Source: Heliocidaris erythrogramma (lineage: Eukaryota > Echinodermata > Echinoidea > Camarodonta > Echinometridae). Taken from it: a stretch of 64,000 nucleotides of DNA. The stretch covers positions 31,217,101-31,281,100 of the forward strand of contig CM046873.1 in NCBI GenBank assembly GCA_025617745.1, given 5' to 3'. The notes beneath the pieces are model-generated. The model did no database searches. It worked only from the letters and a program-made list of their open reading frames with translations, and was not told the DNA's origin. A program made the translations under genes and the position numbers. This document shows, in pieces, positions 22,400 through 64,000 of this stretch. The first letter of the stretch is position 1. The number at the start of each line of letters is the position of its first letter.

Positions 22400-23101
22400 T
22401 TAAAGGTGTTACTCGGAGATGTACAAACAAATCAAAATGCAATAAATTTGGTATCAACGGAAAGGGGAAGATGCCCTAAAACATTCCATCAACATCCATA
22501 GGTTTTCATAAATTAATATTATTCTGTTTCAAATGTGTGCCAAAATATTCGCATATTTTCGCCCCGCGAGCAGTTTCTTTTTCAACCTTGGAAATGTGAC
22601 GTAATACTCGGGACACGCTTGCTTCTAGCTAGCTCACGATCACGTCAATACAGCGCGCGCACATAACGTTCACGGTTCGAGGTAAGCTACTGATTTCTTC
22701 CAATCTTTGAAAATCTTGTCGACAAAATGTCTCATTTTGGCCCTGATTCAGATGTTAGAACCTGGAATCACACCGTCATTCCATCAATCACTGGGTGAAT
22801 CACTGCAGCAGCCACACACACATATACGATTCATACAGCTACAGTACAGTCAAGTCGTATACTGTAAGCTAGCTGTCCCGAGAATGACGTCATTTTTCTA
22901 GTGCAAGAATTCTCGCTTTCGTGGCTCATCTGAGACCCTGTCAGGGGTCTTGAAAAAAGTCCTGATAATCTTTTTGAACAAGCCTACATCTCTACAGGTA
23001 AAATTTCATTTCATTTTATTCTTTGGGGGATTAGCTTTCCAAAAATGTATAATTTGTCCTATTCTTATTTTATGGGACATTTCTCCGGCTATCTGCTTTA
23101 A
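22400..23101 (-). mobile_element. 702-bp TTAAAG TIR element, copy 2
   Basis: This is the reverse-orientation copy of 6729-7433. It has the same inverted ends, beginning TTAAAGGTGTTACTCGGAGA and ending CCGGCTATCTGCTTTAA, and nearly the same interior. Confidence 0.75.
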
Positions 23102-31861: not shown

Positions 31862-31902
31862 TGCAGCACCCCTAGAAGGCTGACGGTGCTGTTGGGGGTG
31901 CT

Positions 31903-32010
31903 GTAGCGGCTTTTGCTAAACAGTCGGGTAACGTCGCGTCGCGTTGGTAGAAATTTTCGAACATTTTTCAGGAAGGTGTCTTCAAGGGGACAAATTAAAA
32001 AAGAGTCCAT
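31903..32010 (-). pseudogene. Short conserved frame at the outer edge of the left arm
   Basis: The minus strand encodes MDSFLICPLEDTFLKNVRK and continues FLPTRRDVTRLFSKSR. The same frame occurs at the outer edge of the right arm (42717-42826) with a Leu-to-Ser change. It is conserved in frame between the arms but unrecognised. Confidence 0.4.
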
Positions 32011-32160
32011 CTCAGTATGATTTTTCCCGTTTTCAGGCTAAAAACGACAAACAAGGGAATAAAGAAAACAATAGAAGGATAATGCAAAGAAAAACATGAA
32101 CTATAAAGAGAGAATTCCCAAAACGAACGCATCTACACTATATACAAATTGTTTTCATAT

Positions 32161-33151
32161 TGTAACGGAATCGACGCTGCTTCCTCCAGCTGCGGTTTCG
32201 GTCAGGATAGCCCGAGCTGAGGACGTGGTACGTTTGGCGGAAATATACCACCTTGTCGAACCTGCTTTCTCTCCAAACCTTGCTTATCTCTGCCTACCGT
32301 CACTACTGCGCTATTTCTGCTAGTTTATTCTTCAGAAGTACGCAGTACCGCACGACCATGTCTAGAAGTACGCAGCACCGCACGACCATGTCCAGAAGAC
32401 TTCAGTACCGCACGACCATGTCCAGAAGACTTCAGTACCGCACGACCATGTCCAAAAGTACGCAGTACCGCACGACCATGTCCAGAAGTACGCAGCACCG
32501 CACGACCATGTCCAGACCTCGTTTTCAGTAGATTGCCATCCACCAGCTTCCCTGCGATGAGGTGCTAAGAAGGCCCGGGCAAAAACCAAGAAATCAATCA
32601 CTGGCGTAGTGATTGAACAATGTACATGTTTCTCGAAATCTTCCAAATCAATAATTGGAAAGACTGTGCAAAACCATCATTTGAATCATTTGGCCCGCAC
32701 ACCAAGCCAGCCTGAAGTATCAGCCACCGTACTATCAGGCTCGGTGAGCGCTGACTTGGCATACAGTGAATGACTCAGCCATAGACCATTTATTCAGCAA
32801 ATACACCATAACATATGCAATCACATGTACAAGAAAAAGTGGTTAATTAAATACACATGCAATAATCAACTCCTATTTTCCTAACTTTCCTTGCTTTGAC
32901 CTAGGCAAATGACCTACCAGATTAATTGGCATAAAATGCTAAATAACTTGGTAACAATCATATAAAGCAAATATAACAACAACAAAAGTTACAGGCTAAA
33001 GTGTAACTAAAACATCATCTTTTCTCAGAAACGTAACATGATCGATCTCACATTTTGATAAAATGTTATTTCAATGCGGTAATCGGCCAAAACAATCATT
33101 TCTATACTAAAACTTAAGCTTTTCTACGAAATTAAACCCAATTTCGTTACA
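32161..33151. mobile_element. 991-bp TIR element inside the left arm
   Basis: The element starts TGTAACGGAAT and ends ATTTCGTTACA, which are inverted ends. ATAT flanks it on both sides (32157-32160 and 33152-33155). The right arm has the uninterrupted site reading TCATATTTTG on the complementary strand near 42562, which supports a later insertion. It contains a 30-bp tandem repeat. No transposase frame was recognised. Confidence 0.75.
32337..32516. repeat. Six tandem copies of a 30-bp unit
   Basis: The unit includes CCGCACGACCATGTCCAGA and comes in two alternating forms (AGTACGCAG or AGACTTCAG starts). As 30 is a multiple of three, several frames stay open through it. It lies inside the 991-bp TIR element. 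Confidence 0.9.
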
Positions 33152-34119
33152 ATATTTTGGGTTAATGTATGCCGACATCTTTGACTCGTGTCTTGAAGAT
33201 GTCGATCGATGGTAGTCAGTAGACGTAAGTAAAGGTAACAAAACTAGATTAAATTAATTGTAGCTACTAACAGACTAATATAATGCTTACCTGTCACCAT
33301 CTTCCCCTGACCCTGAGGCTGAGCTTGAACTTGAAGCCATCGTGCGATGATACACCATCCCGGTGGCCTGTACTTTTAGTCCAGGCTAGAGGTCACATGA
33401 CCTTGTTTTTTTATATATACAATGTTTTTTGGTGGTTTCTTGTCAATTCGAGGGTGCTGATTCCAAATCTGAATGATGCCACTCGCGTAACCTTGAGCGT
33501 TTTCCGCAAATTGGCAAAATCCAAGATGGCCGCCAAAAATGGGAATTTGACCCTGATAATCACAATTACTTGCATTTTATGACGAATTATTATATTTAAC
33601 TTCATACATTTTTGTTCCTTGAGTTATTTAATATGCAAATACAGGTCAATTTTCATTTTTAGTAGATATGTATGGTAATTAGGGCGCAATTTCAATTCAA
33701 AATGGCCGCCGTTCATATAATACTGTACAATATGAAAGCAATCAATATGCATAGAAATATGAAATTATTTTACTGTTTTTCTTACCTCACACCGACACTC
33801 TTATCGAGTTTCCCAAGCTGATTACAATTATCAAGGCTCCACTTACATAAGGCTGTTCTTTTTAAATGCGAAAATCCAAAATGGCCGCCCAAATTATGAT
33901 TACCACAAAGAACCTCCAAATAGACACATTTGACCATTTGTTGCGTTTTCGAACATCCTAAGCTTCATTTGCTTTATAATGAATCTAATCAAATAAAATG
34001 TCCTTTGGACTTAAATCAAATATACCTGTGATAAGGGCATAAATTGAGCACCTAAATGGAAACAGTGTAAAATATGTTACACATCACTAACAAATCAAAG
34101 TGAAAGGCACGTCTTTCAG

Positions 34120-35530
34120 TTATCTCACCAATTCTGTCACTAGATGCACTTTGGCAACATGAGTTTTATTCAGTCTCGTCTTCAGAGCTTGCACTTTCAT
34201 CGTCTTCTGAAGGTTTTTCATTGGGTTTTGGCAGCGGACATCAGCCCCACATCGACAGAATTCAGTGCAGGCTAAATATGATTTGGTGCAGCCACACAGT
34301 GCAGACCTGCAATCTCCCTTGCAACCACACTTGATGATGTTCAGAACTTCCTCAGGAGCCACTGGATGATCATTTGCCAGGTAGATAGGTTGAAGAGATG
34401 ATGACTTCATTGACCAACCGTTCTGCCGAGGATCCAAAGTTGGAGGTTCAGGCCTACCAGCAGCCATCCACAAAGCTGTCTGATAACTCGCCATTCATTT
34501 GGAAGTGTAGATGGTGTGCCAGGATAACAAGCACATCGGTGTCATCACACACAACTTTCACACATGAGTGCCCATTCTTGGCCTCCTGTATCATGTGGTA
34601 AGCCATTAGAACATCAGCTTCTTCATGCGTCACTGCTTCCGGTAGTACTCCAATGCCTGGGTCTATTGGATGTGGTTCTGGTCCTGTCACAACTAATTTC
34701 TTGCCCTCTGGTATTCTCTGGGTGCACAACTGGTCAACAATCAACTTTATAACTTGTTGTTTGTTTGCAGAGATGTTCAGGACGATGTTCTGTTTTGGCA
34801 GAGGGGACTCGCTGAAGAGCCTGTAGACACGGGTGAATCCCTTTGCACGTGTTGTCCTACAACATGACTTGATGCTGTTTTAGTAGTATCTGTCAAACAC
34901 CACACGAGGAACTGATGGACTTTCAGCGTATTTCATGATTTTACCTACTGCAGCATCAACGAAGGTGGATACTTTTGCCGGAGAGCTAGGTCATGGAACA
35001 GTCCAGAGAAAAGCACAACCATCCAAAATTACGACTTCAGGAACTGGTTCGTGACGTTGACTACTTTCAACTTTGATCCTTTCCTTCAGAACGGACTTGC
35101 TTGTGGAACGTACATCACCATTCTCATCAAATAGAGCGGGTGGGTAGCGGGCCAATTCATACGAGAACAATGTCTTGGTTGAGATTGCCTCTTTTGATGA
35201 TGCCAAGATCCCTATTACTCGTGCATAGATCATTTCTGTATTCACAACTTGTGATGCGCCGCCTCTTTGTGTCAGTGAAGCTTTTGACATCACCTTAACC
35301 TTTTTCTTTATGGTTTCGTGAAACCCCTTTGGCCACTTTCTTTCATACTGCACCATCTGATCCAGTCCGATTCTGATTGCATCATCAGCGTTTACCTCTC
35401 TATCGTCAACAACCTGACCAGTGAAGATGTTGACCAGACCCGAGGATGGGTGTTTCTCGTCGTCCAAGACATCGATGCAAGTTGATAAGGCTTCACGAAT
35501 CTTCATTCTGTCAAGTGCATCAGATCTTAT
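34120..35530 (-). pseudogene. PIN-CXC nuclease-like gene, left-arm copy (broken)
   Basis: This minus-strand copy of the gene at 36062-37775 keeps the start of the PIN-like region, the HEEADVLMAYH and CDDTDVLVIL acidic motifs, and the C-terminal CXC cluster (CGCKGDCRSALCGC). It has lost about 400 bp: the sequence runs directly from HFQMNG to the codons just before YQTALW, which removes the TGCD/GVGK part. A frameshift also changes its C-terminal tail. Further N-terminal family sequence continues at 35520-35830 with frameshifts. It cannot make the full protein. Confidence 0.75.
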
Positions 35531-35830
35531 TCTTCAGTTGTCCGACCACACTCAGAGACAAAGCCCAGATTGCAAGAGTGGTCTCATTCAAAGTCGATCC
35601 AATGATACCGGCAGGTTCTTTTCCATGTCGCATGTATGTTGTCTCAATGAACATATCAGACCAGATGCCATTCCACAGACCATCCTGATGGCGCATGACA
35701 TGTTCTCCATCCATGAACTGCTTGAAGATTGCCGGGGGAAGACGCTGCATGGAGCGAAGATAATACAATCAATATCGAGCGTAATTTGTGTGTCCTGATG
35801 CAAAGAATTAGGGCATCATTCTTTCATCTG
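35520..35830 (-). pseudogene. N-terminal part of the PIN-CXC gene family, left arm
   Basis: Across two frames the minus strand encodes FFASGHTNYARY and YYLRSMQRLPPAIFKQFMDG. The arrangement is shared by a large family of uncharacterised animal proteins whose C-terminal half matches 36062-37775. A stop lies between the two pieces, and a 1-nt shift separates this part from MKIREALSTC. The right arm lacks about 276 bp of it. Confidence 0.55.
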
Positions 35831-36004
35831 CTTGCTGATGGAGAGACCAATCACCTCTCAGCTCTAACAAAAGCCATGCAGATGATTATTGGCTTTACCA
35901 GACAATCGACACACAATCTGGTTGTCCTGCTTTGTCTAACGATGGTATCAGTCAATTCGTTGATGTCAGTGAAGTGGCAAGCAGTTGAAAGAATGATGCC
36001 CTAC
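35831..36004. other. Centre of the inverted duplication
   Basis: A short spacer between the arms. AGGGCATCATTCTTTCA at 35808-35824 is inverted as TGAAAGAATGATGCCC near 35986-36001, so the symmetry reaches close to the middle. Confidence 0.6.
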
Positions 36005-36061
36005 TTCTCACAAGAATAAGATCTGATGCACTTGACAGAATGAAGATTCGTGCATCGATGT

Positions 36062-37775
36062 CTTGGACGACGAGAAACACCCATCCTCGGGTCTGGTCAA
36101 CATCTTCACCGGTCAGGTTGTTGACGATAGTGAGGTAAACGCTGATGATGCAATCAGAATCGGACTGGATCAGATGGTGCAGTATGAAAGAAAGTGGCAA
36201 AAGGGGTTTCACGAAACCATAAAGAAAAAGGTTAAGGTGATGTCAAAAGCTTCACTGACACAAAGAGGCGGCGCATCACAAGTTGTGAATACAGAAATGA
36301 TCTATGCACGAGTAATTGGGATCTTGGCATCATCAAAACAGGCAATCTCAACCAAGACATTGTTCTCGTATGAATTGGCCCGCTACCCACCCGCTCTATT
36401 TGATGAGAATGGTGATGTACGTTCCACAAGCAAGTCCGTTCTGAAGGAAAGGATCAAAGTGGAAAGTAGTCAACGTAACGAACCAGTTCCTGAAGTCGTA
36501 ATTTTGGATGGTTGTGCTCTTCTCTGGAATGTTCCATGGCCTAGCTCTCCAGCAAAAGTATCCACCTTCGTTGATGCTGCAGTAGGTACAATCATGAAAT
36601 ACGCTGAAAGTCCATCAGTTCCTCATGTGGTGTTTGACAGATACTACGAGAACAGCATCAAGTCATGTTGTCGGACAACACGTGCAAAGGGATTCACCCG
36701 TGTCTACAGGCTCTTCAGCGAGTCCCCTCTGCCAAAACAGAACATCGTCCTGAACATCTCTGAGAACAAACAAGTTATAAAGTTGATCGTTGACCAGTTG
36801 TGCACCAAGAGAATACCAGAGGGCAAGAAGGTAGTTGTGACAGGACCAGAACCACATCCAATAGATGTTGGCATTGGAGTACTACCGGAAGCAGTGACGC
36901 ATGAAGAAGCTGATGTTCTAATGGCTTACCACATGATACAGGAGGCCAAGAATGGGCACTCAAGTGTGAAAGTTGTGTGTGATGACACCGATGTGCTTGT
37001 TATCCTGGCACACCATCTACACTTCCAAATGAATGGTCTGCCACGCACAGTGAAGGTGGTGATGGAATCATGTTCTCGGAAACGAACAGTCATCGACGTC
37101 AATGAGGTAATCAAGAAACATCAGAAAATCATGCCCAATCTTCTTGCCGCGCATGCTCTGACCGGATGTGATACAGTGTCGTGCTTCTCAGGTGTGGGAA
37201 AGGCTTCAGCACTGAAAGCCCTGGAGTCATATTCGGACACTCTCCTCCTGGGAGATCCAGCAGTGGCACTGGATGAGGCAGTGGAATCTTGCTTGAAGTA
37301 TGCACTTTACGGAGGAGATTTCCAAGGCTCCCTTGACACCATGCGCAAGAACATTTTCACCAAGAAGACTGGTGGAAAGCGTCACCTACCACCAAAACTG
37401 TGCAGCCTTCCACCTACCATGGCTGCATTTCGACCACATTGTCAGCGCGCCAGTTATCAGACAGCTTTGTGGATGGCTGCTGGTAAGGCCGAACCTCCAA
37501 CTTTGGATCCTCGGCAGAACGGTTGGTCAATGAAGTCATCATCTCTTCAACCTATCTACCTGGCAAATGATCATCCAGTGGCTCCTGAGGAAGTTCTGAA
37601 CATCATCAAGTGTGGTTGCAAGGGAGATTGCAGGTCTGCACTGTGTGGCTGTACCAAATCATCTGTAGCCTGCACTGAATTCTGTCGATGTGGGGCTGAT
37701 GTCCGCTGCCAAAACCCAATGAAAAAACCTTCAGAAGACGATGAAAGTGCAAGCTCTGAAGACGAGACTGAATAA
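36062..37775 (+). pseudogene. XPG/FEN-like PIN plus CXC protein, right-arm copy (N-terminally truncated)
   Basis: A 571-codon open frame without a credible start. The order of motifs fits the XPG/FEN branch of PIN nucleases: VVILDGCALLW near residue 148, HVVFDRYYENS near 190, HEEADVLMAYH near 287, CDDTDVLVIL near 312, then HALTGCDTVSCFSGVGKASA near 370-390, which looks like the last acidic residue and helix-turn region that follow the active site in FEN1. The C terminus has a cysteine cluster spaced C-x-C-x3-C-x4-C-x-C-x6-C-x3-C-x-C-x5-C, as in tesmin/TSO1 CXC DNA-binding modules. The tail is acidic. A 16-bp deletion relative to the left copy just after MKIR breaks the frame upstream. The family is multi-copy in aquatic animals, and a transposon origin is likely but unproven. 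Confidence 0.7.
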
Positions 37776-37849
37776 AACTCATGTTGCCAAAGCGCATCTA
37801 GTGACAGAATCGGTGAGATAACTGAAAGACGTGCCTTTCACTTTGATTT

Positions 37850-38075
37850 AATAATAATAATAATAGCTACATTTATATTGCGCACGTATCCATCCCAGAG
37901 GATGCTCAAGGCGCCTACAAAGGAGATATTATTACCCCGGTCATCGGATACTGGCATGCCCGCACACAATGTATGCACATTCTCTGCTCCCTGGGGAGTA
38001 TTCCAGCAATGGGCAGTACAGTGACGCTCAAATTGCTAAACAAATGACATTAACTTTCGCATCCTACCGGGTACC
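37850..38075 (-). mobile_element. SINE-like insertion in the right arm
   Basis: It starts with AATAATAATAATAATAGC and CATTTATATTGCGC, the 3' ends seen in SINEs of this genome (compare 21425). The left arm has no counterpart, so it is younger than the duplication. Confidence 0.55.
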
Positions 38076-38585
38076 CGGGGGGCCACTCAGATATATGGGT
38101 GTACACATGCGTGTTCATGGGTTTTCAAAATACCCCCTAAACAGGTTTTATAATTGGATGAAAAAAGACCCCTAAACAAGGATTTTTGCGCGGTTTTTCA
38201 TCATCCAACAGGTTTGACTTAGTGCAAGCTAGCGCGCGCTATAATAAGCAACAACACATATCAGAGGGGGAACCATTTCAGTGCACTATGGCTGCGTCGG
38301 TAGAACTCTCCGCTCCCGATTCTCCTCTCTTTTTTGCATCCATCTGCATGCACTGCCGCGCGCCACTCCCTGAACTGAAATCGGGCTGTAAATCCCCGTG
38401 AAAATCCCTGAAAATATCAGAAAATGTCCCATTTACATATTGGTGCCAAAGTGAAAAATATACCCCCTAAACGCGTTCGGCCAGATTAGTCAAAAGCACC
38501 CCTTTTTGTTGAAAATCAGCGTTTTTGGACCCCTTAACGCGTAACGCGCGTTACGCGTTCCACCTGAAAAAAGGACCCCTTTTTG
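38076..38585. repeat. Dispersed repeat in the right arm
   Basis: It begins GGGGGGCCACTCAGATATATG and ends GGACCCCTTTTTG. Phrases such as CCCCTAAACA recur in both halves in inverted or direct form. It is absent from the left arm. Family not recognised. Confidence 0.5.
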
Positions 38586-39225
38586 CCCTTATCACAGGTA
38601 TATTTGATTTAAGTCCAAAGGACATTTTATTTGATTAGATTTATTATAAAGCAAATGAAGGTTAGGATGTTCGAAAACGCAACAAATGGTCAAATATGTC
38701 TATTTGGAGGTTCTTTGTGGTAAATATAATTTTGGCGGCCATTTTGGATTTTCGCATTTAAAAAGAACAGCCTTATGTAAGTGGAGCCTTGATAATTGTA
38801 ATCAGCTTGGGAAACTTGATAAGAGTGTCGGTGTGAGGTAAGAAAAACAGTAAAATAATTTCATATTTCTAAGCATATTGATTGCTTTCATATTGTACAG
38901 TATTATATGAACAGCGGCCATTTTGAATTGAAATTGCGCCCTAATTACCATATATATCTACTAAAAATGAAAATTGACCTGTATTTGCATATTAAATAAC
39001 TCAAGGAACAAAAATGTATGAAGTTAAATATAATAATTCGTCATAAAATGCAATTGTGATTATCAGGGTCAAATTCCCATTTTTGGCGGCCATCTTGGAT
39101 TTTGCCAATTTGCGGAAAACGCTCAAGGTTACGCGAGTGGCATCATTCAGATTTGGAATCAGCACCCTCGAATTAGCAAGAAACCATCAAAAAACATTGT
39201 ATATATCCAAAAACAAGGTTAGGTC

Positions 39226-39800
39226 CTCTTTCTATGGGGCCTAGCCTGGACTATTTCACGGATGATGTCTGATGATGATGATGACGATGATCGTGACACA
39301 GTGCAAAGCACTTTACGCGTGAAAAGATATGCAGCGTAGACCATGTACAGAGCATGACTAGCCAACACGTACCGTACGTGTATAGGCAGGCTAGGCCTAG
39401 TCTGCAAGCACAGACCCTAATTTGACACTTTATAAGAAAATCATTGTGTCTTGACAGAAGCCTAATTCAGCTACCTTCTGGTCGGAAGGAGCAGCTATAG
39501 TACATGGCCTATAGTAGTCTTACAGTGCAGGCACTCTTTTACGACTGACCAGGGTTTGTGCATGCAAAACTAGGTTAGGCTAGGCTAGGCTAGGCCATGC
39601 GCAGCTCAGGCCATTCCACGAATCCGGAAAACTTAAACACAGCTAAAATTATTAAAATTATTAAACATCTCTGTGTTTTCAATCCAAAGTTCAATAAAAC
39701 AGTGATTAATTGAATAATTAATTAATTAATCCAACAATCGATTTATTCATGGCATAAGAAATCAAATAATTAATTCATGCTGTCATCAGGCTTTTGCTAA
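39226..39800. other. Right-arm segment without a left-arm match
   Basis: Non-coding. It contains TGATGATGATGATGACGATG and a short GGCTA tandem array at 39574-39595. The left arm has about 100 bp of different sequence at this place. Confidence 0.6.
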
Positions 39801-39885
39801 AAGGGAAGATGGTGACAGGTAAGCATTATATTAGTCTGTTAGTAGCTTCAATTAATTTAATCTAGTTTTGTTACCTTTACTTACG

Positions 39886-39923
<38 letters not shown>

Positions 39924-40388
39924 ATAATCAGTTTTTATTCTTTTCTCTCTTGAAACAAATTACAATCATGGTACAAATTACAATCATCATATATAACACA
40001 TACTACAAATATGATATTCTAAAACAATATAAATTTTGATCTAACAAAAAGCTTCAAAAGAAATTAATATTACTTGAATATTGAAGAAAAAAATCCATAA
40101 ACAAAAACCGGATAAATTGATATCCGTAATCATAATTATACTCTTAATTCTCCTAATGACAAGCGTTTCCACCTTTTTTCCTTACATGTTCAATTTCCAT
40201 ACATCATACAAATAAGATTTCATATTTCCAGAGAAAAAAACAAACAAACAAACTTAATTCTTAATGAGATAAACATATCCAGTTGTATAATGCAACAATT
40301 TTGTTTTGCAATGTCGTAATTTATACTCCCTTTGTATTGTTGACCTGAGAGAAAGTTTTCTTTAAAAAAAAACAAAAAAAAAAACAAA

Positions 40389-40428
40389 CAACCCTACCCT
40401 ACCCTACCCTACCCTACCCTACCCAACC
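40389..40428. repeat. (ACCCT)n microsatellite in the LINE 3' region
   Basis: Seven or so ACCCT units, followed by a C run, lie between the stop codon and the poly(A) tail of the LINE. The minus strand reads (AGGGT)n. Confidence 0.85.
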
Positions 40429-40442
40429 TCCCCCCCCCCCCC

Positions 40443-42493
40443 TTAACCGGTGGACGACTGGCTCTGGGTTCCAATTGTTTGTCTAATATTCAGGTTTTCC
40501 CATTTAGAAAAATGGATAGTAAGAGTCCCCCTCATTGCTGCCAATTTCCTTTCTTCTACTTTATCCCCTACAATACTATTCTTTATTTCATTAAATGAAG
40601 GTGGTTTTTTAAGTTCTCTATTTCTATAAATCAGATATTTAACAAGAATTAGAATGTGATTCATTAATTGATGTTTTCCTTTATTTCTCTCCTCCTTCCC
40701 AAACAGAATTTCCTCCCAACTATAGTTATGTATTTCAAAATCTATAAATCTTGTGCACATTTCCCACACTGATTGTACAAATTCACAAGTATAAAATAAA
40801 TGTTTATATGTTTCTTCTTCTGTTTCGCAAAATGAGCATAAGTTAGTCGAGACAAGACCAAAACGGAAGAGGTGGTGGTTTGTATATAATATATTATGTA
40901 TAAGTTTGAACTGAAACTCTCTTAATCGACTATTAAGTGTACACTCTCTTAGTCTTAAAAATATGTTTTCTATTTCCTTGCAGGAAAAACCATAGTTCCT
41001 TCCAATTCTCTCAAAAACCAAAGGTTTAAATCCATCTTTCTTTATTAGTTGTACATAGATTTGTTTTGATTTTACATCAGTTATATTAGTTGTTTTCTTT
41101 CCAAAAGTGAAATCAGTTCCAGAATTATTTTTTTCTTCCATTCTAATATTATTTTTCCAACAAAAGGGTAAACAGGCATAAAGGTGCTTGATCTTTTCAA
41201 TGTCATTCACTTCTACACCTAAATCGACAAAGTGTCTATCACATTTTAGTTTACCATCGTTTTCCAGAATATGTTTTAATTTGTAAATTCCTTTGTCGTA
41301 CAACCTCTTATCGTATATACAACTTCCTTTATATCGAATAAGCTTATTATTGAAAATTACCACATCACCAATGTCTATACTCCTTATATGTCTTGTATTC
41401 ACCCAATCTTCTAATAAATCCATATAAAATTGTGGAGCTGTCACTTTTAATAAACCTGGTATATAGTCACATGAAAATATTAAATCTCCACCCAGGTGTT
41501 TAGTGACAAAGTTAAAATATTGTTTCCATTTCATGTCTTCATCTTTATTTAGAAGTTTTTGAATCCACATAATTCGCTGCGATTTCACTTGTGCAGAAAA
41601 GTTTAACATCTTCAATCCCCCTTGCTTATAGTCTAAAAACATTGTATTTCTATTGATTTTATTTGTCTTTCCTTTCCATATGAAATCAAAAGTTAGTTCA
41701 TCCAGTGAATCATAAACCCATTTTGGAACAGGAGTAAGTGACGCCCGATAAAGAACTTTAGAATAAATATGCACCTTCAATAGTTGAATCTTTCCCATGA
41801 GTGTTAAATCCCTTTGCTTCCAAAAATTTAAAAGTGTTTTTATTTTACTTAAGATTTCTTTGTAATTTAAATCTTCTTTCCTGTGTTCATCAAGGGAAAA
41901 GAAAACCCCTAAAACCTTAAGAAAGTCAACTATTTCGCCAAAAGAAAAATCATAATCTAAACGTTGGCATAAACCTAACCTTAATATTTTAGTTTTGTCG
42001 TTGTTTATTTTCAGTCCAGAAAGTTTTTCGAAGTCTGCAAATAGTACTTTTAACCTATCAATTGATTTTTCATTGCGAGCAAAAATTGTCATATCATCGG
42101 CATAAAGTACTAGTTTAGTTTCCTTATCTCCAAAATTAATTCCTTCCACCAATTTATCTGTTCGTAATTTGTGTGCCATTACTTCAATACATAAGATAAA
42201 AAGGTACGGAGAAAGAGGATCTCCCTGCCTTACTCCCCTTTCTACTTTGAAATAACCAGTGGACCTTCCTTCATTTAATACACAACTTAAAGTGTTCGTG
42301 TATAAAACTTTAACCCACTTTTGAAAAGATGGACCAAAACCAAATGATGACAGAACTTTTTGAAGAAATTGATGTGAAACCGAGTCAAAAGCTTTTTCGA
42401 AGTCTATAGCCAACAAAAAACCGGATAAATTATAACGGGATGTATGAAAAATAATATCATCAATAATGCGAATGGCCTCACCAATATTCCTTC
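40443..42493 (-). CDS. LINE reverse transcriptase, 5'-truncated
   Basis: The frame is open from the truncated left edge (RNIGEAIRIIDDIIFHTSRY) to the stop at 40443, about 683 codons. Reverse transcriptase motifs appear in order: AIDFEKAFDS (motif A), GVRQGDPLSPYLFIL (motif B) and YADDMTIFA (motif C, YADD codons at 42104-42093). A C-terminal CSFCETEEETYKHLFYTC zinc knuckle follows, as in L1/Tx1-type elements. The endonuclease and any first ORF are missing, so it is a dead but young copy with an undamaged frame. Confidence 0.88.
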
Positions 42494-42716
42494 CCTTTAC
42501 TTACGTCTACTGACTACCATCGATCGACATCTTCAAGACACGAGTCAAAGATGTCGGCATACAAAATATGAGAACACTTTGTATATAGTGTAGATGCGTT
42601 CGTTTTGGGAATTCTCTCTTTATAGTTCATGTTTTTCTTTGCATTATCCTTCTATTGTTTTCTTTATTCCCTTGTTTGTCGTTTTTAGCCTGAAAACGGG
42701 AAAAAATCATACTGAG

Positions 42717-42826
42717 ATGGACTCTTTTTCAATTTGTCCCCTTGAAGACACCTTCCTGAAAAATGTTCGAAAATTTCTACCAACGCGACGCGACGTTACC
42801 CGACTGTTTAGCAAAAGCCGCTGTAG
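42717..42826 (+). pseudogene. Short conserved frame at the outer edge of the right arm
   Basis: The plus strand encodes MDSFSICPLEDTFLKNVRK and continues FLPTRRDVTRLFSKSR, the mirror of 31903-32010. It may be the start of a second gene of the element. Confidence 0.4.
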
Positions 42827-42829
42827 CTA

Positions 42830-53840: not shown

Positions 53841-53951
53841 ACCCCAGGTACAACAATCCAAAGTCGACCTCGCCCATTTTATGGCTAATCGCATCACTTA
53901 ATTTCGGCAGGTAAGATAGAAATTTGTACTTATACTTCAAGAGAATTACTG

Positions 53952-54216
53952 TAAGTGTAACTATCTAGCAGGCTTTTTGATTTTACGATTTAACTATTGT
54001 TTCGATGAAAAAAATGGAATTTCCTAGCCGAGCCGATCTTTTCCCCGTACTGTCAAGTCAGCGACGGTATACGGTACATTACATACAGTGCGATCAAGTC
54101 ATTTGAATCGACGGTACAGTACAGGGAAAAGATCGGCTCGGTGAGGAAATTCCATTTTTTTTCATCGAAACAATCGTTAAAATAAATCGTAAAATCAAAG
54201 ATAGTTACAGTCACGA
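53952..54216. mobile_element. Foldback element in the left palindrome arm only
   Basis: GTAACTATCT and TTTGATTTTACGATTTA, then GTTTCGATGAAAAAAATGG and GAGCCGATCTTTTCCC, recur inverted on the other side of a short centre. The arms are about 110 bp. The right palindrome arm lacks it, so it inserted after the arms formed, or was lost from the right. Confidence 0.75.
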
Positions 54217-54387
54217 TAGTCACTCATAGGTACACGCCATTGCCCACTGTGTAGGAATGCAGCCAACACACATCCCATACCTAAACTGCATCACTGTGCA
54301 TTTTTGGCTATATTTAAGTGAAACTCATATATTGCAGTTTACTTAAATCTAAATACTTATGTTGAATAATAGATGATTAAAACTTAC

Positions 54388-54566
54388 CAGTTTGTTTTGT
54401 GACCTTTGAAGAGGGTTTCCTGAAATTTGGGGTACTTTTTGTTGATAACTCCTATCGAGACTGTCCCGTCAGCATCCAGTTTGTATTTTTCACGATTATG
54501 ATGAAGGGAGCCCTCAGCGCTCGTAGTGGTACCGGCGCGATCGGTTCGTCGATCTCCTACGAAGAC
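54388..54566 (-). CDS. Exon-like frame in the left palindrome arm
   Basis: The minus-strand acceptor CCCTTTCAG and donor GTAAGT enclose 179 nt with one open frame: VFVGDRRTDRAGTTTSAEGS, then a KYKLDADGTVSIGVINKK segment and GHKTN before a split codon. The mirror copy at 55475-55653 has the same length and splice sites with a few amino-acid changes. No known family recognised, and no neighbouring exon found. Confidence 0.4.
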
Positions 54567-54694
54567 CTGAAAGGGCCAAACTGACGACGTAAAAAAATTA
54601 AAAATATTACGTACGTACGTAATAATTACTACGTACGTACGTAATATTTTTAATTTTTTTACATCGTCAGTTTGGCCCTTCCAGGTCTTCGTAG
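54557..54694. repeat. 138-bp hairpin, left arm
   Basis: CTACGAAGACCTGAAAGGGC at the left is inverted as GGCCCTTCCAGGTCTTCGTAG-type sequence at the right. The middle is TACGTACGTACGTAAT repeated in both orientations. The exon-like frame begins inside its left end. Confidence 0.85.
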
Positions 54695-55346
54695 AATAGC
54701 TTGTGTGCGTAACATTCTGCGTACGTATCTATGGTGCGTAACCATGTAGAGCGGCCTCACTAGTGCGCAACATATTGAGAGCAGTCGTCATCCGTATGGA
54801 GGTGTGGGTAACAAGTACGAAAAACAAGGCTGTAAATGTAAGTTTTTATAACTTTCTACATTTTGTATCTTAACGAACTTAAAACGTAAAATCTAAAGAG
54901 TGATACTTAAGTATCAGTTTGCCCACAAAACCTCCATTTCAAACAAAATTACATCTGTATCCCCAATACCCAGTATACACACATGTATATGATCCTAATG
55001 GTCAATATGACCACATCAGCAAGCAATGGTCATATTGACCATTAGAATCATATACATGTGTGTATACTGGGTATTGGGGATACAGATGTAATTTTGTTTC
55101 AAATGGATGTTTTTGTGGGCAAACTAATACTTAAGTATCATTCTTTAGAGTTTAAGTTATCAGTTCGTTAAGATACAAAATGTAGAAAGTTATAAAAACT
55201 TACATTTACAGCTCTCTTTTTGGAACTTGTTACCCACACCTGCATACGGATCACGATTGCTCTCAATATGTTGCGCACTAGTGAGGCCGCTCTACATGGT
55301 TACGCACCGTTGATACGTACGCAGAATGTTACGCACACAAGCTATT

Positions 55347-55484
55347 CTACGAAGACCTGGAAGGGCCAAACTGACGACGTAAAAAAATAAAAAATATTAC
55401 GTACGTACGTAGTAATTATTACGTACGTACGTAATATTTTTTCTTTTTTTACGTCGTCAGTTTGGCCCTTTCAGGTCTTCGTAG
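55347..55484. repeat. 138-bp hairpin, right arm
   Basis: The mirror of 54557-54694, with the same TACGTACGTA core and ends. Confidence 0.85.
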
Positions 55485-55653
55485 GAGATCGACGAACCCA
55501 TCGCACCGGTACTACTACGAGCGCTGAGGGCTCCCTTCATCATAATCGTGAAAAATACAAACTGGATGCTGACGGGACAGTCTCGATAGCAGTTATCGAC
55601 AAAAAGGACCCAAAATTTCAGGAAACCCTCTTCAAAGGTCACAAAACAACCTG
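55475..55653 (+). CDS. Exon-like frame in the right palindrome arm
   Basis: The acceptor GGCCCTTTCAG and donor GTAAGT enclose 179 nt encoding VFVGDRRTHRTGTTTSAEGS, then KYKLDADGTVSIAVIDKK and FKGHKTT before a split codon. Most differences from the left copy change the amino acid, so it gives no clear sign of constraint since duplication. It may be an exon of an unidentified gene or a gene fragment caught in the palindrome. Confidence 0.42.
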
Positions 55654-55993
55654 GTAAGTTTTAATCATCTATTATTCAATATAATTCTTTGGATGTAAGT
55701 AAACTGTAATATATTATATTCAATTAAATATAGCCAAAAATGCACAGTGATGCAGTTTAGGTATGGTATGAGTATTGGCTGCGTTACTACACAGTCGGCA
55801 ATGGCGTGTACCTATCCTGCCTATGAGTGAATATGACCATTGCTTGCTGATGCGACGACAGTAGGCCTAATTCTCTTTATGTCTTTTATGACTTAGTTTA
55901 AGTACAAATTTCTATCTTACCTGCCGAAATTAAGTGATGCGATTAGCCATAAAATGGGCGAGGTCGACTTTGGATAGTTGTAACTTGTACCTG

Positions 55994-56579: not shown

Positions 56580-59500
56580 CAATTCAAAATGAATCAAGCT
56601 AGTATTACAAGTGTTACAGATGTTCGCAAGACATTTCATATTCTTAGCTGTTTACACCATGAAAAAGAGGAGATATTCAGCTTTATTATGGTATAGGTCA
56701 CTATGCTTAGCAAGTTGTCTGGAGCTTACTGTTTAAACTTCAACACGGCATATCTTCTCGATATTATTACACTTCGCATGAACAATAGCGCCAGTGCAAT
56801 ATTCTATGCAGCTTCACGTAACTCAATAATGAAGTTCTGCAGAAAAAGTGTTATAAATATTCGCAAGACATTTCATATTCTTAGCTCTTTACACCATGAA
56901 AAAGAGGAGATATTCAGCTTTATTATGGTATAGGTCGCTATGCTTAGCAAGTTGTCTGGATCTTACTGTTTAAACTTCAACACGGCTATATTCTCGGTAT
57001 TATTACGCTTCGCATGAACAATACCACCAGTGCAATATTCTATGCAGCTTCACGTAACTCAATAATGAAGTTCTGCAGAAAAAGTGTTATAAATGTTCGC
57101 AAGACATTTCATATTCTTAGCTGATTACACCATGAAAAAGAGGAGATATTCAGCTTTATCATGGTATAGGTCGCTATGCTTAGCAAGTTGTCTGGATCTT
57201 ACTGTTTAAACTTCAACACGGCACATATTCTCGATATTATTACACTTCGCACGAACAATACCGCCAGTGCAATATTCTACGCAGCTTCACGTAACTAAAT
57301 AATGAAGTTCTGCAGAAAAAGTGTTATAAATGTTCGCAAGACATTTCATATTCTTAGCTGATTACACTATTAAATAGAGGAGATATTCAGCTTTCTTATG
57401 GTATAGGTCGCTATGCTTAGCAAGTTGTCTGGATCTTACTGTTTAAACTTCAACACGGCACATATTCTCGAAATATTACACTTCGTATGAACATTAGCGC
57501 CAATGCGGAATTCGCGTAACTCAATAATGAAGTTCTGCAGAAAAAGTGTTATAAATATTCGCAAGACATTTCATATTCTTAGCTGTTTACACCATGACAA
57601 AGAGGAGATATTCAGCTTTATTATGGTATAGGTCGCTATGCTTAGCAAGTTGTCTGGATCTTACTGTTTAAACTTCAACACGGCATATATTCTCGATATT
57701 ATTACGCTTCGCATGAACAATAGCGCCAGTGTAATATTCTATGCAGCTTCACGTAACTCAATAATGAAGTTCTGCAGAAAAAGTGTTATAAATGTTCGCA
57801 AGACATTTCATATTCTTAGCTGATTACACCATGAAAAAGAGGAGATATTCAGCTTTATCATGGTATAGGTCGCTATGCTTAGCAAGTTGTCTGGATCTTA
57901 CTGTTTAAACTTCAACACGGCACATATTCTCGATATTATTACACTTCGCACGAGCAATACCGCCAGTGCAATATTCTACGCAGCTTCACGTAACTAAATA
58001 ATGAAGTTCTGCAGAAAAAGTGTTATAAATGTTCGCAAGACATTTCATATTCTTAGCTGATTACACTATTAAATAGAGGAGATATTCAGCTTTCTTATGG
58101 TATAGGTCGCTATGCTTAGCAAGTTGTCTGGATCTTACTGTTTAAACTTCAACACGGCACATATTCTCGAAATATTACACTTCGTATGAACATTAGCGCC
58201 AATGCGGAATTCGCGTAACTCAATAATGAAGTTCTGCAGAAAAAGTGTTATAAATATTCGCAAGACATTTCATATTCTTAGCTGATTACACCATGACAAA
58301 GAGGAGATATTCAGCTTTATTATGGTATAGGTCGCTATGCTTAGCAAGTTGTCTGGATCTTACTGTTTAAACTTCAACACGGCACATATTCTCGATATTA
58401 TTACACTTCGCACGAACAATACCGCCAGTGCAATATTCTACGCAGCTTCACGTAACTAAATAATGAAGTTCTGCAGAAATAGTGTTGTAAATGTTCGCAA
58501 GACATTTCATATTCTTAGCTGATTACACTATTAAATAGAGGAGATATTCAGCTTTATTATGGTATAGGTCGCTATGCTTAGCAAGTTGTCTGGATCTTAC
58601 TGTTTAAACTTCAACACGGCACATATTCTTGAAATAATATACACTCCGCATTAAAGCGCTCGTATTGTATTATGGAGCTTCGTAACTCAATAATGAAGTT
58701 CTGAAGAAAAAGTGTGTAAATGTTCGCAAGACATTTCATATTCTTAGCTGTTTACACCATGACAAAGAGGAGATATTCAGCTTTATTATGGTATAGGTCG
58801 CTATGCTTAGCAAGTTGTCTGGATCTTACTGTTTAAACTTCAACACGGCATATATTCTCGATATTATTACGCTTCGCATGAACAATAGCGCCAGTGTAAT
58901 ATTCTATGCAGCTTCACGTAACTCAATAATGAAGTTCTGCAGAAAAAGTGTTATAAATGTTCGCAAGACATTTCATATTCTTAGCTGATTACACCATGAA
59001 AAAGAGGAGATATTCAGCTTTATCATGGTATAGGTCGCTATGCTTAGCAAGTTGTCTGGATCTTACTGTTTAAACTTCAACACGGCACATATTCTCGATA
59101 TTATTACACTTCGCACGAGCAATACCGCCAGTGCAATATTCTACGCAGCTTCACGTAACTAAATAATGAAGTTCTGCAGAAAAAGTGTTATAAATGTTCG
59201 CAAGACATTTCATATTCTTAGCTGATTACACTATTAAATAGAGGAGATATTCAGCTTTCTTATGGTATAGGTCGCTATGCTTAGCAAGTTGTCTGGATCT
59301 TACTGTTTAAACTTCAACACGGCACATATTCTCGAAATATTACACTTCGTATGAACATTAGCGCCAATGCGGAATTCGCGTAACTCAATAATGAAGTTCT
59401 GCAGAAAAAGTGTTATAAATATTCGCAAGACATTTCATATTCTTAGCTGATTACACCATGACAAAGAGGAGATATTCAGCTTTATTATGGTATAGGTCGC

Positions 59501-62248
59501 TATGCTTAGCAAGTTGTCTGGATCTTACTGTTTAAACTTCAACACGGCACATATTCTCGATATTATTACACTTCGCACGAACAATACCGCCAGTGCAATA
59601 TTCTACGCAGCTTCACGTAACTAAATAATGAAGTTCTGCAGAAATAGTGTTATAAATGTTCGCAAGACATTTCATATTCTTAGCTGATTACACTATTAAA
59701 TAGAGGAGATATTCAGCTTTATTATGGTATAGGTCGCTATGCTTAGCAAGTTGTCTGGATCTTACTGTTTAAACTTCAACACGGCACATATTCTTGAAAT
59801 AATATACACTCCGCATTAAAGCGCTCGTATTGTATTATGGAGCTTCGTAACTCAATAATGAAGTTCTGAAGAAAAAGTGTGTAAATGTTCGCAAGACATT
59901 TCATATTCTTAGCTGTTTACACCATGACAAAGAGGAGATATTCAGCTTTATTATGGTATAGGTCGCTATGCTTAGCAAGTTGTCTGGATCTTACTGTTTA
60001 AACTTCAACACGGCATATATTCTCGATATTATTACGCTTCGCATGAACAATAGCGCCAGTGTAATATTCTATGCAGCTTCACGTAACTCAATAATGAAGT
60101 TCTGCAGAAAAAGTGTTATAAATGTTCGCAAGACATTTCATATTCTTAGCTGATTACACCATGAAAAAGAGGAGATATTCAGCTTTATCATGGTATAGGT
60201 CGCTATGCTTAGCAAGTTGTCTGGATCTTACTGTTTAAACTTCAACACGGCACATATTCTCGATATTATTACACTTCGCACGAACAATACCGCCAGTGCA
60301 ATATTCTACGCAGCTTCACGTAACTAAATAATGAAGTTCTGCAGAAAAAGTGTTATAAATGTTCGCAAGACATTTCATATTCTTAGCTGATTACACTATT
60401 AAATAGAGGAGATATTCAGCTTTCTTATGGTATAGGTCGCTATGCTTAGCAAGTTGTCTGGATCTTACTGTTTAAACTTCAACACGGCACAAATTCTTGA
60501 AATATTACACTCCGCATTAAAGCGCTCGTACTGTATTATGGAGCTTCGTAACTCAATAATGAAGTTCTGCAGAAAAAAGTGTTATAAATGTTCGCAAGAC
60601 ATTTCATATTCTTAGCTGATTACACCATGAAATAGAGGAGATATTCAGCTTTATCATGGTATAGGTCACTATGCTTAGCAAGTTGTCTGGATCTTACTGT
60701 TTAAACTTCAACACGGCACATATTCTCGAAATATTACACTTCGTATGAACATTAGCGCCAATGCGGAATTCGCGTAACTCAATAATGAAGTTCTGCAGAA
60801 AAAGTGTTATAAATATTCGCAAGACATTTCATATTCTTAGCTGATTACACCATGACAAAGAGGAGATATTCAGCTTTATTATGGTATAGGTCGCTATGCT
60901 TAGCAAGTTGTCTGGATCTTACTGTTTAAACTTCAACACGGCACATATTCTCGATATTATTACACTTCGCACGAACAATACCGCCAGTGCAATATTCTAC
61001 GCAGCTTCACGTAACTAAATAATGAAGTTCGGCAGAAATAGTGTTGTAAATGTTCGCAAGACATTTCATATTCTTAGCTGTTTACACCATGACAAAGAGG
61101 AGATATTCAGCTTTATTATGGTATAGGTCGCTATGCTTAGCAAGTTGTTTGGATCTTACTGTTTAAACTTCAACACGGCACATATTCTTGAAATAATATA
61201 CACTCCGCATTAAACATGTTAAAGCGCTCGTATTGTATTATGGAGCTTCGTAACTCAATAATGAAGTTCTGAAGAAAAAGTGTGTAAATGTTCGCAAGAC
61301 ATTTCATATTCTTAGCTGATTACACCATGAAATAGAGGAGATATTCAGCTTTATCATGGTATAGGTCACTATGCTTAGCAAGTTGTCTGGATCTTACTGT
61401 TTAAACTTCAACACGGCACATATTCCCGAAATATTACACTTCGTATGAACAATAGCGCCAGTGCGGTATTACGGGGCTTCACCTTACTCAATAATGAAGT
61501 TCGGCAGAAATAGTGTTGTAAATGTTCGCAAGACATTTCATATTCTTAGCTGATTACACCATGACAAAGAGGAGATATTCAGCTTTATTATGGTATAGGT
61601 CGCTATGCTTAGCAAGTTGTCTGGATCTTACTGTTTAAACTTCAACACGGCATATATTCTCGATATTATTACGCTTCGCATGAACAATAGCGCCAGTGTA
61701 ATATTCTATGCAGCTTCACGTAACTCAATAATGAAGTTCTGCAGAAAAAGTGTTATAAATGTTCGCAAGACATTTCATATTCTTAGCTGATTACACTATT
61801 AAATAGAGGAGATATTCAGCTTTCTTATGGTATAGGTCACTATGCTTAGCAAGTTGTCTGGATCTTACTGTTTAAACTTCAACACGGCACATATTCTTGA
61901 AATAATATACACTCCGCATTAAAGCGCTCGTATTGTATTATGGAGCTTCGTAACTCAATAATGAAGTTCTGAAGAAAAAGTGTGTAAATGTTCGCAAGAC
62001 ATTTCATATTCTTAGCTGATTACACCATGAAATAGAGGAGATATTCAGCTTTATCATGGTATAGGTCACTATGCTTAGCAAGTTGTCTGGATCTTACTGT
62101 TTAAACTTCAACACGGCACATATTCCCGAAATATTACACTTCGTATGAACAATAGCGCCAGGGCGGTATTACGGGGCTTCACCTTACTCAATAATGAAGT
62201 TCGGCAGAAATAGTGTTGTAAATGTTCGCAAGACATTTCATATTCTTA
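56580..62248 (+). repeat. Satellite array, monomer about 233 bp, forward part
   Basis: About 24 tandem monomers, each with ATGCTTAGCAAGTTGTCTGG, GTTTAAACTTCAACACGGC and TTCGCAAGACATTTCATATT. Anchor ATGs fall at 56703, 56940, 57176, 57413, 57638, 57875, 58112, 58337, 58574, 58803 and so on, giving steps of 225-238 bp. The first monomer at the left edge is degenerate. The repeated 61-codon frame is a by-product of the repeat. Confidence 0.95.
57638..60670 (+). repeat. Higher-order repeat, 5 monomers = 1165 bp
   Basis: Monomers of 237, 237, 225, 237 and 229 bp form an ordered set of five variants. The set repeats at 57638-58802 and 58803-59967 almost without change and begins a third time at 59968. 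After about 60442 the order breaks up into mosaics. Confidence 0.92.
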
Positions 62249-64000
62249 AACAGTAAGATCCAGACAACTTGCTAAGCATAGTGACCTATACCATGATAAA
62301 GCTAAATATCTCCTCTTTTTCATGGTGTAATCAGCTAAGAATATGAAATGTCTTGCGAACATTTATAACACTTTTTCTGCAGAACTTCATTATTGAGTTA
62401 CGAAGCTTCATAATACAATACGAGCGCTTTAATGCGGATTTTTTTATTTTTTCAAGAATTTGTGCCGTGTTGAAGTTTAAACAGTAAGATCCAGACAACT
62501 TGCTAAGCATAGCGACCTATACCATAATAAAGCTGAATATCTCCTCTATTTCATGGTGTAAACAGCTAAGAATATGAAATGTCTTGCGAACATTTATAAC
62601 ACTATTTCTGCCGAACTTCATTATTGAGTAAGGTGAAGTCCCGTAATACAGTACGAGCGCTTTAATGCGGAGTGTAATATTTCAAGAATTTGTGCCGTGT
62701 TGAAGTTTAAACAGTAAGATCCAGACAACTTGCTAAGCATAGTGACCTATACCATAATAAAGCTGAATATCTCTTCTATTTCATGGTGTAAACAGCTAAG
62801 AATATGAAATGTCTTGCGAACATATATAACACTTTTTTCTGCAGAACTTCATTATTGAGTTACGAAGCTCCATAATACAGTACGAGCGCTCTAATGCGGA
62901 GTGTAATATTTCGAGAATATGTGCCGTGTTGAGGTTTAAACAGTAAGATCCAGACAATTTGCTAAGCATAGTGACCTATACCATGATAAAGCTGAATATC
63001 TCCTCTATTTCATGGTGTAAACAGCTAAGAATATGAAATGTCTTGCGAACATTTATAACACTTTTTTCTGCAGAACTTCATTATTGAGTTACGAAGTCCC
63101 GTAATACAGTACGAGCGCTTTAATGCGGAGTGTAATATTTCAAGAATTTGTGCCGTGTTGAAGTTTAAACAGTAAGATCCAGACAACTTGCTAAGCATAG
63201 CGACCTATACCATAATAAAGCTGAATATCTCCTCTATTTCATGGTGTAAACAGCTAAGAATATGAAATGTCTTGCGAACATTTATAACACTATTTCTGCC
63301 GAACTTCATTATTGAGTAAGGTGAAGTCCCATAATACAATACGAGCGCTTTAATGCGGAGTGTATATTATTTCAAGAATATGTGCCGTGTTGAAGTTTAA
63401 ACAGTAAGATCCTGACAACTTGCTAAGCATAGTGAGTTATACCATGATAAAGCTGAATATCTCCTCTATTTCATGGTGTAATCAGCTAAGAATATGAAAT
63501 GTCTTGCGAACATTTACAACACTATTTCTGCCGAACTTCATTATTGAGTAAGGTGAAGCCCCGTAATACCGCACTGGCGCTATTGTTCATACGAAGTGTA
63601 ATATTTCGGGAATATGTGCCGTGTTTAGGTTTAAACAGTAAGATCCAGACAACTTGCTAAGCATAGTGACCTATACCATGATAAAGCTGAATATCTCTTC
63701 TATTTCATGGTGTAATCAGCTAAGAATATGAAATGTCTTGCGAACATTTACAACACTATTTCTGCCGAACTTCATTATTGAGTAAGGTGAAGCCCCGTAA
63801 TACCGCACTGGCGCTATTGTTCATACGAAGTGTAATATTTCGGGAATATGTGCCGTGTTTAGGTTTAAACAGTAAGATCCAGACAACTTGCTAAGCATAG
63901 TGACCTATACCATGATAAAGCTGAATATCTCTTCTATTTCATGGTGTAATCAGCTAAGAATATGAAATGTCTTGCGAACATTTACAACACTATTTCTGCC
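62249..64000 (-). repeat. Satellite array, inverted part, runs off the window
   Basis: The same monomer continues on the opposite strand (GACAACTTGCTAAGCATAG, GAAATGTCTTGCGAACAT). About eight copies are seen to the window end, mostly of the variant with AATACGAGCGCTTTAATGCG or its GCACTGGCGCTATTG relative. The last two copies (about 63410-64000) are nearly identical to each other. Confidence 0.95.

What the first reader, a model, noticed from the sequence alone, without database searches (positions are those of the whole stretch)
31909..42826. An inverted duplication carrying two divergently oriented copies of a PIN-CXC nuclease-like gene
The two halves of an 11-kb region are reverse complements with a short centre near 35.9 kb. 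Each half contains a copy of one gene plus about 1 kb of matching non-coding flank and a short conserved frame at its outer end. This could be a mobile element that propagates as, or collapses into, a head-to-head dimer. The gene type has no well-described transposition role that I know of.
Basis: partly seen in the sequence, partly recalled or inferred. Interest (0 to 1): 0.7.

Follow-up and report, generated by a model that had tools for sequence, protein, structure and literature searches.

The report
Palindromic jumping gene nested in another
The stretch is one mobile DNA element sitting inside another: the inner one is a mirror-image element that carries the back half of a transposase-nuclease gene twice and has spread as a unit, an extreme form of something known from the fly element Galileo.

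Summary
The inverted repeat is real, but it is two nested elements. The outer pair (31908-42819) is a MITE-like element with ~0.4-kb inverted ends and an 8-bp target duplication. Inside it sits a separate 5,877-bp palindromic DNA transposon (33377-39253) with its own tips and a 3-bp duplication; two outer-element copies show the empty site. The palindrome is a genome-wide family: all 26 loci read carry arm sequence on both strands, and all 35 distinct tip pairs are one A and one B tip. The gene reads outward in both arms and matches the C-terminal half (upstream segment, PIN-like nuclease, CXC) of a longer protein in a non-palindromic relative, L093. A 3-bp duplication plus a nuclease fits AcademX as one paper describes it; the nuclease rests on motifs read by eye. 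Near-fixed differences between A and B arms lie only within ~80 bp of the tips, the centre flips between copies, and the gene drifts near-neutrally. Best reading: a non-autonomous AcademX-like derivative whose inverted ends swallowed half the element by aberrant gap repair. Galileo is the precedent, here larger.

The parts
31908..42819 (.). Outer MITE-like element (GGCTTTTGCT...AGCAAAAGCC), ~1.4 kb when uninterrupted, here swollen to 10.9 kb by nested insertions
   Evidence: 21 complete copies compared, 18 of 21 with an exact 8-9 bp target duplication
31900..31907 (.). Left 8-bp target duplication GCTGTAGC of the outer element (right copy 42820-42827)
33377..39253 (.). Inner palindromic transposon, 5,877 bp, tips TAGTCCAGGCTAG...CTAGCCTGGACTA
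33374..33376 (.). Left 3-bp target duplication TTT of the palindrome (right copy 39254-39256); empty site CCTGTACTTTCACGG seen in outer-element copies L034 and L050
33377..35534 (-). Left arm, A-type tip; gene copy on the minus strand (frames 34120-34494 and 34991-35506) with a 412-bp deletion and stop codons
35535..36011 (-). Centre, 477 bp; minus strand codes the segment upstream of the nuclease part (putative end of the transposase domain, frame broken here); joins the left arm; lacks a 72-bp piece that other copies keep
36012..39253 (+). Right arm, B-type tip
36063..37775 (+). Open frame of 570 aa: PIN/XPG-like nuclease part (by motifs) plus C-terminal cysteine cluster (CXC); N-terminally truncated relative to L093
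37859..38579 (.). 721-bp insert in the right arm, shared with the copies on C1 and C7 (same subfamily)
32160..33152 (.). About 1-kb insert TTGTAACGG...CGTTACAA with a TA target site and an internal 30-bp tandem array, in the left half of the outer element
39889..42490 (-). LINE insertion (RVT_1 and zf-RVT, open frame 40443-42416) with poly-T and a ~15-bp target duplication, in the right half of the outer element (ends approximate)

Best explanation
33377-39253 is a copy of a non-autonomous, palindromic DNA transposon derived from an AcademX-like element. In the ancestor, one tip (A) most likely invaded the opposite inverted end (B) during repair of the gap left by excision and copied the 3' half of the element inward, so both ends now consist of the same inverted 3' half (PIN nuclease and CXC coding), with only the terminal ~80 bp still telling A from B. 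The N-terminal part of the protein was lost, so the palindromes move only if a related transposase is supplied in trans. They transpose as whole palindromes by cut-and-paste with 3-bp duplications, and their arms keep recombining, which partly homogenises them and flips the centre. Shown: nesting, tips, duplications, palindromy at the loci read, A/B differences confined to the tips, centre flips, near-neutral gene evolution, no N-terminus found. Inferred: gap repair as origin, cut-and-paste, trans-mobilisation, the Academ assignment and the nuclease activity.
For: Tips with 3-bp duplications in 7 of 10 copies where both flanks were read (GTT, TAT, CTA, TTT, TTT, TAA, AAA). Arm sequence on both strands at 26 of 26 loci read. 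Tip pairs: 35 of 35 distinct pairs are one A and one B, none AA or BB, 0.9-8.3 kb long (reversed-pattern control 0 matches each). Near-fixed A/B differences (majority of at least 80% in each class) at 9 sites, all at positions 2443-2494 of the 2,514 compared, that is within ~80 bp of the tip. Same-tip arms 0.3-1.4% apart between window, C1 and C7 copies while sister arms are 2-3% apart. Centre joined to the A arm in 15 and to the B arm in 4 of 19 copies where it can be read (hand count), including opposite centres in C13 and C2:825, whose arms are <1% apart. The non-palindromic relative L093 aligns at 42% over 522 columns and continues ~740 aa further N-terminally. No listed N-terminal match at palindromic loci beyond aa 650-763 (59 of 203 candidates scored). 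AcademX = nuclease and 3-4 bp duplications: PMC10045372 passage.
Against: 3 of 10 copies read at both flanks lack a clear 3-bp duplication (C1, C2:1510401, C6:1606939). The nuclease assignment has no database support: no Pfam hit, only chance-like PDB sequence hits, AlphaFold model pLDDT 39.5, no fold match at E <= 0.001. No Academ profile was available to test the DDE domain. No autonomous element with these tips was found, so trans-mobilisation is not shown. The multi-copy relatives with 1,567-aa frames match the centre at only 29% (E 2.8e-7), and it was not checked that they carry the nuclease and CXC parts. A/B labels are not fully mixed on the arm tree (5 changes against a shuffled mean of 8.5, P 0.015), so exchange between arms is partial; private alleles in both arms of one locus are few (29 against 335 in one arm). 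Three 8.28-kb copies (C4, two on C9) have an interior of about 4.3 kb that was not read. Four unread places show arm matches on one strand only.
Confidence: 0.75

Rival explanations
1. The palindrome arose several times independently from different autonomous copies, and sharing of arm variants between A and B sides reflects repeated origin, not exchange between arms.
For: C2:1510401 has a different, deeper centre that includes more transposase-like coding; A and B arms of one copy or subfamily cluster together in several lineages.
Against: The arm/centre junction is the same in most copies whose centre was read, which points to one origin for these; the deeper centre can be the ancestral form from which the common one was deleted.
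Confidence: 0.15
2. The element belongs to another superfamily that makes 3-bp duplications and captured the PIN-CXC gene as cargo.
For: No Academ transposase profile could be run; the nuclease fold is unconfirmed.
Against: In L093 the centre part and most of the nuclease part are one continuous 1,249-aa frame with ~740 residues N-terminal to the matched part, so the PIN part looks like the tail of a transposase-like protein, not cargo.
Confidence: 0.1
3. The inverted arms are an assembly artefact or a local rearrangement at this locus.
For: Palindromes are a classic assembly problem; raw reads were not available.
Against: 26 of 26 loci read, on 14 contigs, show arms on both strands, and 7 of 10 have target duplications; the insertion has a clean empty site in two outer-element copies.
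Confidence: 0.02
4. The palindrome mobilises itself with the encoded nuclease, without a DDE transposase, for example by resolving its own cruciform.
For: Palindrome and a nuclease-like gene occur together; the window copy keeps a 570-codon open frame; the N/S ratio is slightly below neutral.
Against: The gene drifts: N/S is 0.82 (single-locus changes) and 0.88 (shared changes) of the neutral expectation, 10 of 233 shared changes are stops, and 32 of 46 arms carry at least one stop in the aligned frame.
Confidence: 0.04

Closest known systems
Galileo (P superfamily, Drosophila), TIR extension by recruitment of internal sequence
   Same: Part of the coding region has been copied into both inverted ends; [quoted passage not shown]
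   Different: Here ~2.4 kb is recruited, with the whole 570-codon nuclease/CXC part; 3-bp rather than 7-8 bp duplications; different protein; the palindrome is the form found at all 26 loci read rather than a rare variant.
AcademX lineage of the Academ superfamily
   Same: 3-bp target duplications and a nuclease-like domain in the transposase-like protein (PMC10045372, passage seen: AcademX 3 or 4 bp and nuclease, AcademH 9 or 10 bp and helicase).
   Different: Palindromic and lacking the N-terminal part of the protein; identity of the transposase domain not tested.
Foldback-type elements
   Same: Long inverted arms make up most of the element.
   Different: Arms here are coding halves of a transposon with two distinguishable tips. 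This comparison is from recall, apart from a mention of Foldback-like elements in PMC4168063.

Membership tests
AcademX | 3-4 bp target site duplication | tested here: met
   7 of 10 copies with both flanks read have an exact 3-bp duplication; 3 do not
AcademX | nuclease (XPG-like) in the transposase protein | tested here: inconclusive
   Acidic motifs in FEN1/XPG order by eye (ILDG, VFDRYY, HEEAD, DDTD, LTGCD..G.GK; the motif memory is recalled), mostly conserved in L093; the DDTD motif falls at the end of the L093 frame and aligns poorly; no Pfam, PDB or fold support
AcademX | complete Academ DDE transposase | tested here: not met
   The palindromes keep only the part aligned to L093 from about aa 742-760 (aa ~650 at three places); N-terminal residues not found there. 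Whether the domain is Academ DDE could not be tested. Hence filed as a derivative, not as an autonomous member
Galileo-type TIR recruitment (a process, not a family) | coding sequence of the element present inverted in both ends while the tips remain distinct | tested here: met
   9 near-fixed A/B differences, all within ~80 bp of the tips; gene in both arms
Galileo / P superfamily | 7-8 bp duplication | tested here: not met
   3-bp duplications

The most novel reading that the evidence does not exclude
A transposon family whose main surviving form is a recombining palindrome: half of an AcademX-like element became the terminal inverted repeat, the arms continually exchange sequence and flip the centre, and the family persists with no detectable autonomous partner by parasitising related AcademX-like transposases in the same genome.
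Probability: 0.4. Interest if true: 0.55.

Novelty: new variant of a known kind. Interest (0 to 1): 0.42.

Why it matters
Recruitment of coding sequence into inverted ends was described as peculiar to Galileo in the paper read. Finding a much larger case with another transposon type suggests that it may be a general by-product of gap repair between inverted ends. The distinguishable tips, the flipping centre and the subfamilies give a natural record of exchange between palindrome arms. It also suggests that a PIN-CXC gene of this kind in an animal genome should be checked as the tail of an AcademX-like transposase before a host function is proposed.

Tried and rejected
Reading the whole 31.9-42.8 kb as one inverted duplication was rejected after the outer ends turned out to be a separate abundant element with its own target duplications. 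An assembly artefact is judged very unlikely on 26 of 26 loci read (my notebook entry says 27, the correct count is 26). Functional constraint on the gene was tested and not clearly found: observed 396 N, 178 S, 23 stops against 414, 157 and 27 expected; by hand the excess of S is about 1.9 standard deviations, so weak constraint is not excluded. Structure prediction of the 570-aa protein and its fold search were useless. PDB and viral-contig searches gave nothing informative. Literature searches listed no paper whose title or abstract start describes palindromic Academ elements; 'AcademX' occurs in one held paper. The primary AcademH paper is not held and was not seen.

Rows dropped: the 26 loci are the 30 best-scoring matches merged with the stretches, plus the full window element; six further clusters were not fetched (C10:9857522, C2:14804841, C21:4879242, C10:12486896, C19:7731580, C5:26292106). 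Searches use arms from 24 of the 26 loci, 46 in all (C2:14640121 and one of the two C9 loci left out as near-copies of others; only one arm each for C4 and C9); one search kept those with at least 700 bases. In one search, 14 A and 12 B arms of the 46 were used, those with readable tips. In the centre-orientation count 7 of 26 loci were dropped: C10:14802221, C10:35408900, C4 and two C9 loci without a centre match, C18:39712758 without a tip match, C2:1510250 with a composite centre. In one search, 21 copies of the outer element were used, those with both ends in the fetched stretch. In one search, C14 has one B tip that pairs with two A tips, so 36 printed pairs are 35 distinct B-anchored elements; 11 of 82 tips stayed unpaired. 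The arm reference stops 7 bases short of the right tip, so position 2,514 is not the tip itself.
Full report
OBSERVATION. The window lies in a 1.06-Gb, 26-contig genome (C21:31217101-31281100). Self-comparison confirms inverted arms from 31.9 to 42.8 kb, in pieces at 93-100% identity, with a centre at 35535-36011.

NESTING. A 267-base query at the outer left end (31895-32161) gave 653 candidate places in the genome, 40 of them scored. Mapping the window's segments onto the fetched loci shows that 31908-32161 + 33166-33306 and their inverted counterparts are the ends of a ~1.4-kb element that occurs without the gene. Of 21 complete copies, 18 have exact 8-9 bp duplications; the window copy has GCTGTAGC on both sides. 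In copies L034 and L050 the site CCTGTACTTTCACGG is uninterrupted; in the window it is split by a sequence that begins TAGTCCAGGCTAG and ends CTAGCCTGGACTA, with TTT on both sides. So 33377-39253 is a separate insertion. A LINE with a ~15-bp duplication and poly-T, and a ~1-kb element with a TA target site, were inserted into the outer element as well (read by eye).

THE PALINDROME AS A FAMILY. A 1,315-base gene query found 104 matches (72 candidates, 40 scored). The 30 best came as loci; with added stretches they merge into 26 loci on 14 contigs, window included. All 26 carry arm sequence on both strands, though C4 and two C9 loci have only ~350 bp of a second arm and C18 only 180 bp in the stretch read. 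Among places not read, ten clusters show both strands and four places show one strand only (C2:14804841, C13:29826340, C11:25411795; C5:26292577); both lists are capped. Ten copies were read at both flanks; seven have an exact 3-bp duplication, and C1, C2:1510401 and C6:1606939 do not. Two tip types exist. Genome-wide pattern searches gave 40 A and 42 B tips, with 0 matches for the reversed control patterns. Pairing inward-facing tips within 12 kb gave 35 distinct elements, each with one A and one B tip; 11 of 82 tips were unpaired.

HOW THE ARMS EVOLVE. Among 14 A-tip and 12 B-tip arms, mean A/B divergence in positions 2401-2514 is 9.4% (1.0% within A, 0.6% within B); in the other windows it is close to the within-type values. 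All 9 near-fixed differences (majority of at least 80% in each class) lie at positions 2443-2494 of 2,514, within ~80 bp of the tip. In the subfamily of the window, C1 and C7, A arms are 0.9-1.4% apart, B arms 0.3-1.0%, sister arms 2-3%, so whole palindromes moved. 18 of 190 informative sites are polymorphic for the same alleles in both tip classes. On the arm tree the A/B label changes 5 times (25 labelled arms; shuffled mean 8.5, P 0.015): more ordered than random, yet not two clades. Alleles private to one locus sit in both arms 29 times and in one arm 335 times. The centre is joined to the A arm in 15 and to the B arm in 4 of the 19 copies where both can be read (hand count); C13 and C2:825 share an arm deletion and are <1% apart, but have opposite centres. 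Together this indicates partial, repeated exchange between arms.

THE GENE. The gene reads outward from the centre in both arms. In copies that keep a further 72 bp, the centre continues the frame upstream. No Pfam family matches the 570-aa part. A search with the centre's translation (150 of 247 candidates scored) found relatives with long open frames: C11:40793185 at 60% identity, and 26 equally scoring places at 29% identity, 15 of them with 1,567-aa frames. Whether the latter carry the nuclease and CXC parts was not checked. The C11 place, fetched as L093, shows no long inverted repeat over 7.4 kb and has frames of 1,249 and 250 aa; the palindrome protein aligns at 42% over 522 columns from L093 residue 742, and its C-terminal part at 37% to the second frame. 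L093's N-terminal 765 aa found no listed match at palindromic loci except residues ~650-763 at C2:1513153, C2:47682764 and C21:2763272 (59 of 203 candidates scored). C2:1510401 thus has a deeper centre, joining left-arm coding near residue 650 to right-arm coding near residue 785 (read by eye). The palindromes therefore appear to lack roughly the first 650-740 residues. Changes in the gene are near-neutral: N/S is 0.82 (single-locus) and 0.88 (shared) of expectation, with 10 stops among 233 shared changes, and 32 of 46 arms have at least one stop in the aligned frame.

MECHANISM. The data fit cut-and-paste movement of a palindrome that keeps two functional tips. The formation model, invasion of the opposite inverted end during gap repair and copying of the 3' half, predicts what is seen: both ends carry the same half in inverted orientation, and the two tips differ only terminally. 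It is inferred. Supply of transposase in trans is also inferred, from the missing N-terminus and the drifting gene.

COMPARISON. The Galileo paper (PMC4168063; section 10 read, other passages seen) reports coding sequence recruited into both inverted ends, >500 bp in one copy, and calls it unique to Galileo so far. The present case is several times larger, in an element with 3-bp duplications. PMC10045372 (passages seen) states that AcademX makes 3-4 bp duplications and encodes a nuclease, AcademH 9-10 bp and a helicase; that is the basis for 'AcademX-like'. PMC10294476 (passages seen) gives a mean of 5,565 bp for curated bivalve Academ elements. The XPG motif order is recalled; no call confirms it.

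VERDICT. A real, nested pair of transposons. The inner one is a well-defined palindromic, apparently non-autonomous, probably AcademX-derived family. It is a new variant of a known kind, of moderate interest.

Noticed in passing
window 53846-55985: Another inverted structure: 54226-55815 matches its own reverse complement at 93% over 1,591 columns, framed by a 91-bp inverted pair at 96.7%. Probably another palindromic element.
   Followed up: no
window 56609-64000: Tandem satellite array of roughly 230-bp units whose orientation reverses near 62.25 kb.
   Followed up: no
window 6729-7433 and 22400-23101: Inverted pair of ~720 columns at 92.8% identity, 15 kb apart.
   Followed up: no
G000, 26 places listed (for example C9:32086920, C10:32776031): A distant relative (29% identity to the centre part) with 26 equally scoring copies, 15 with 1,567-aa open frames: possibly a recently active family of the same kind in this genome and a candidate source of transposase.
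   Followed up: partly
G000 C2:9285193, C2:42012386, C15:27588016 and others: Short pieces 74-87% identical to residues ~665-765 of L093, next to centre-like pieces: probable deletion derivatives of the L093 element type.
   Followed up: no
C4:56833042-56841323, C9:29279958-29288238, C9:29300563-29308844: Three tip-paired elements of 8.28 kb with a nearly full right arm, a remnant of the left arm and apparently non-coding sequence in the part read, which is identical over 1,160 bases between the C4 copy and the C9 copy compared; about 4.3 kb of each was not read. They may be segmental duplicates.
   Followed up: partly
C11:32583454-32584327, C14:22124009-22126085, C18:38887265-38889047: Tip-paired elements of only 0.9-2.1 kb: probable MITE-like deletion derivatives of the palindrome.
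   Followed up: no
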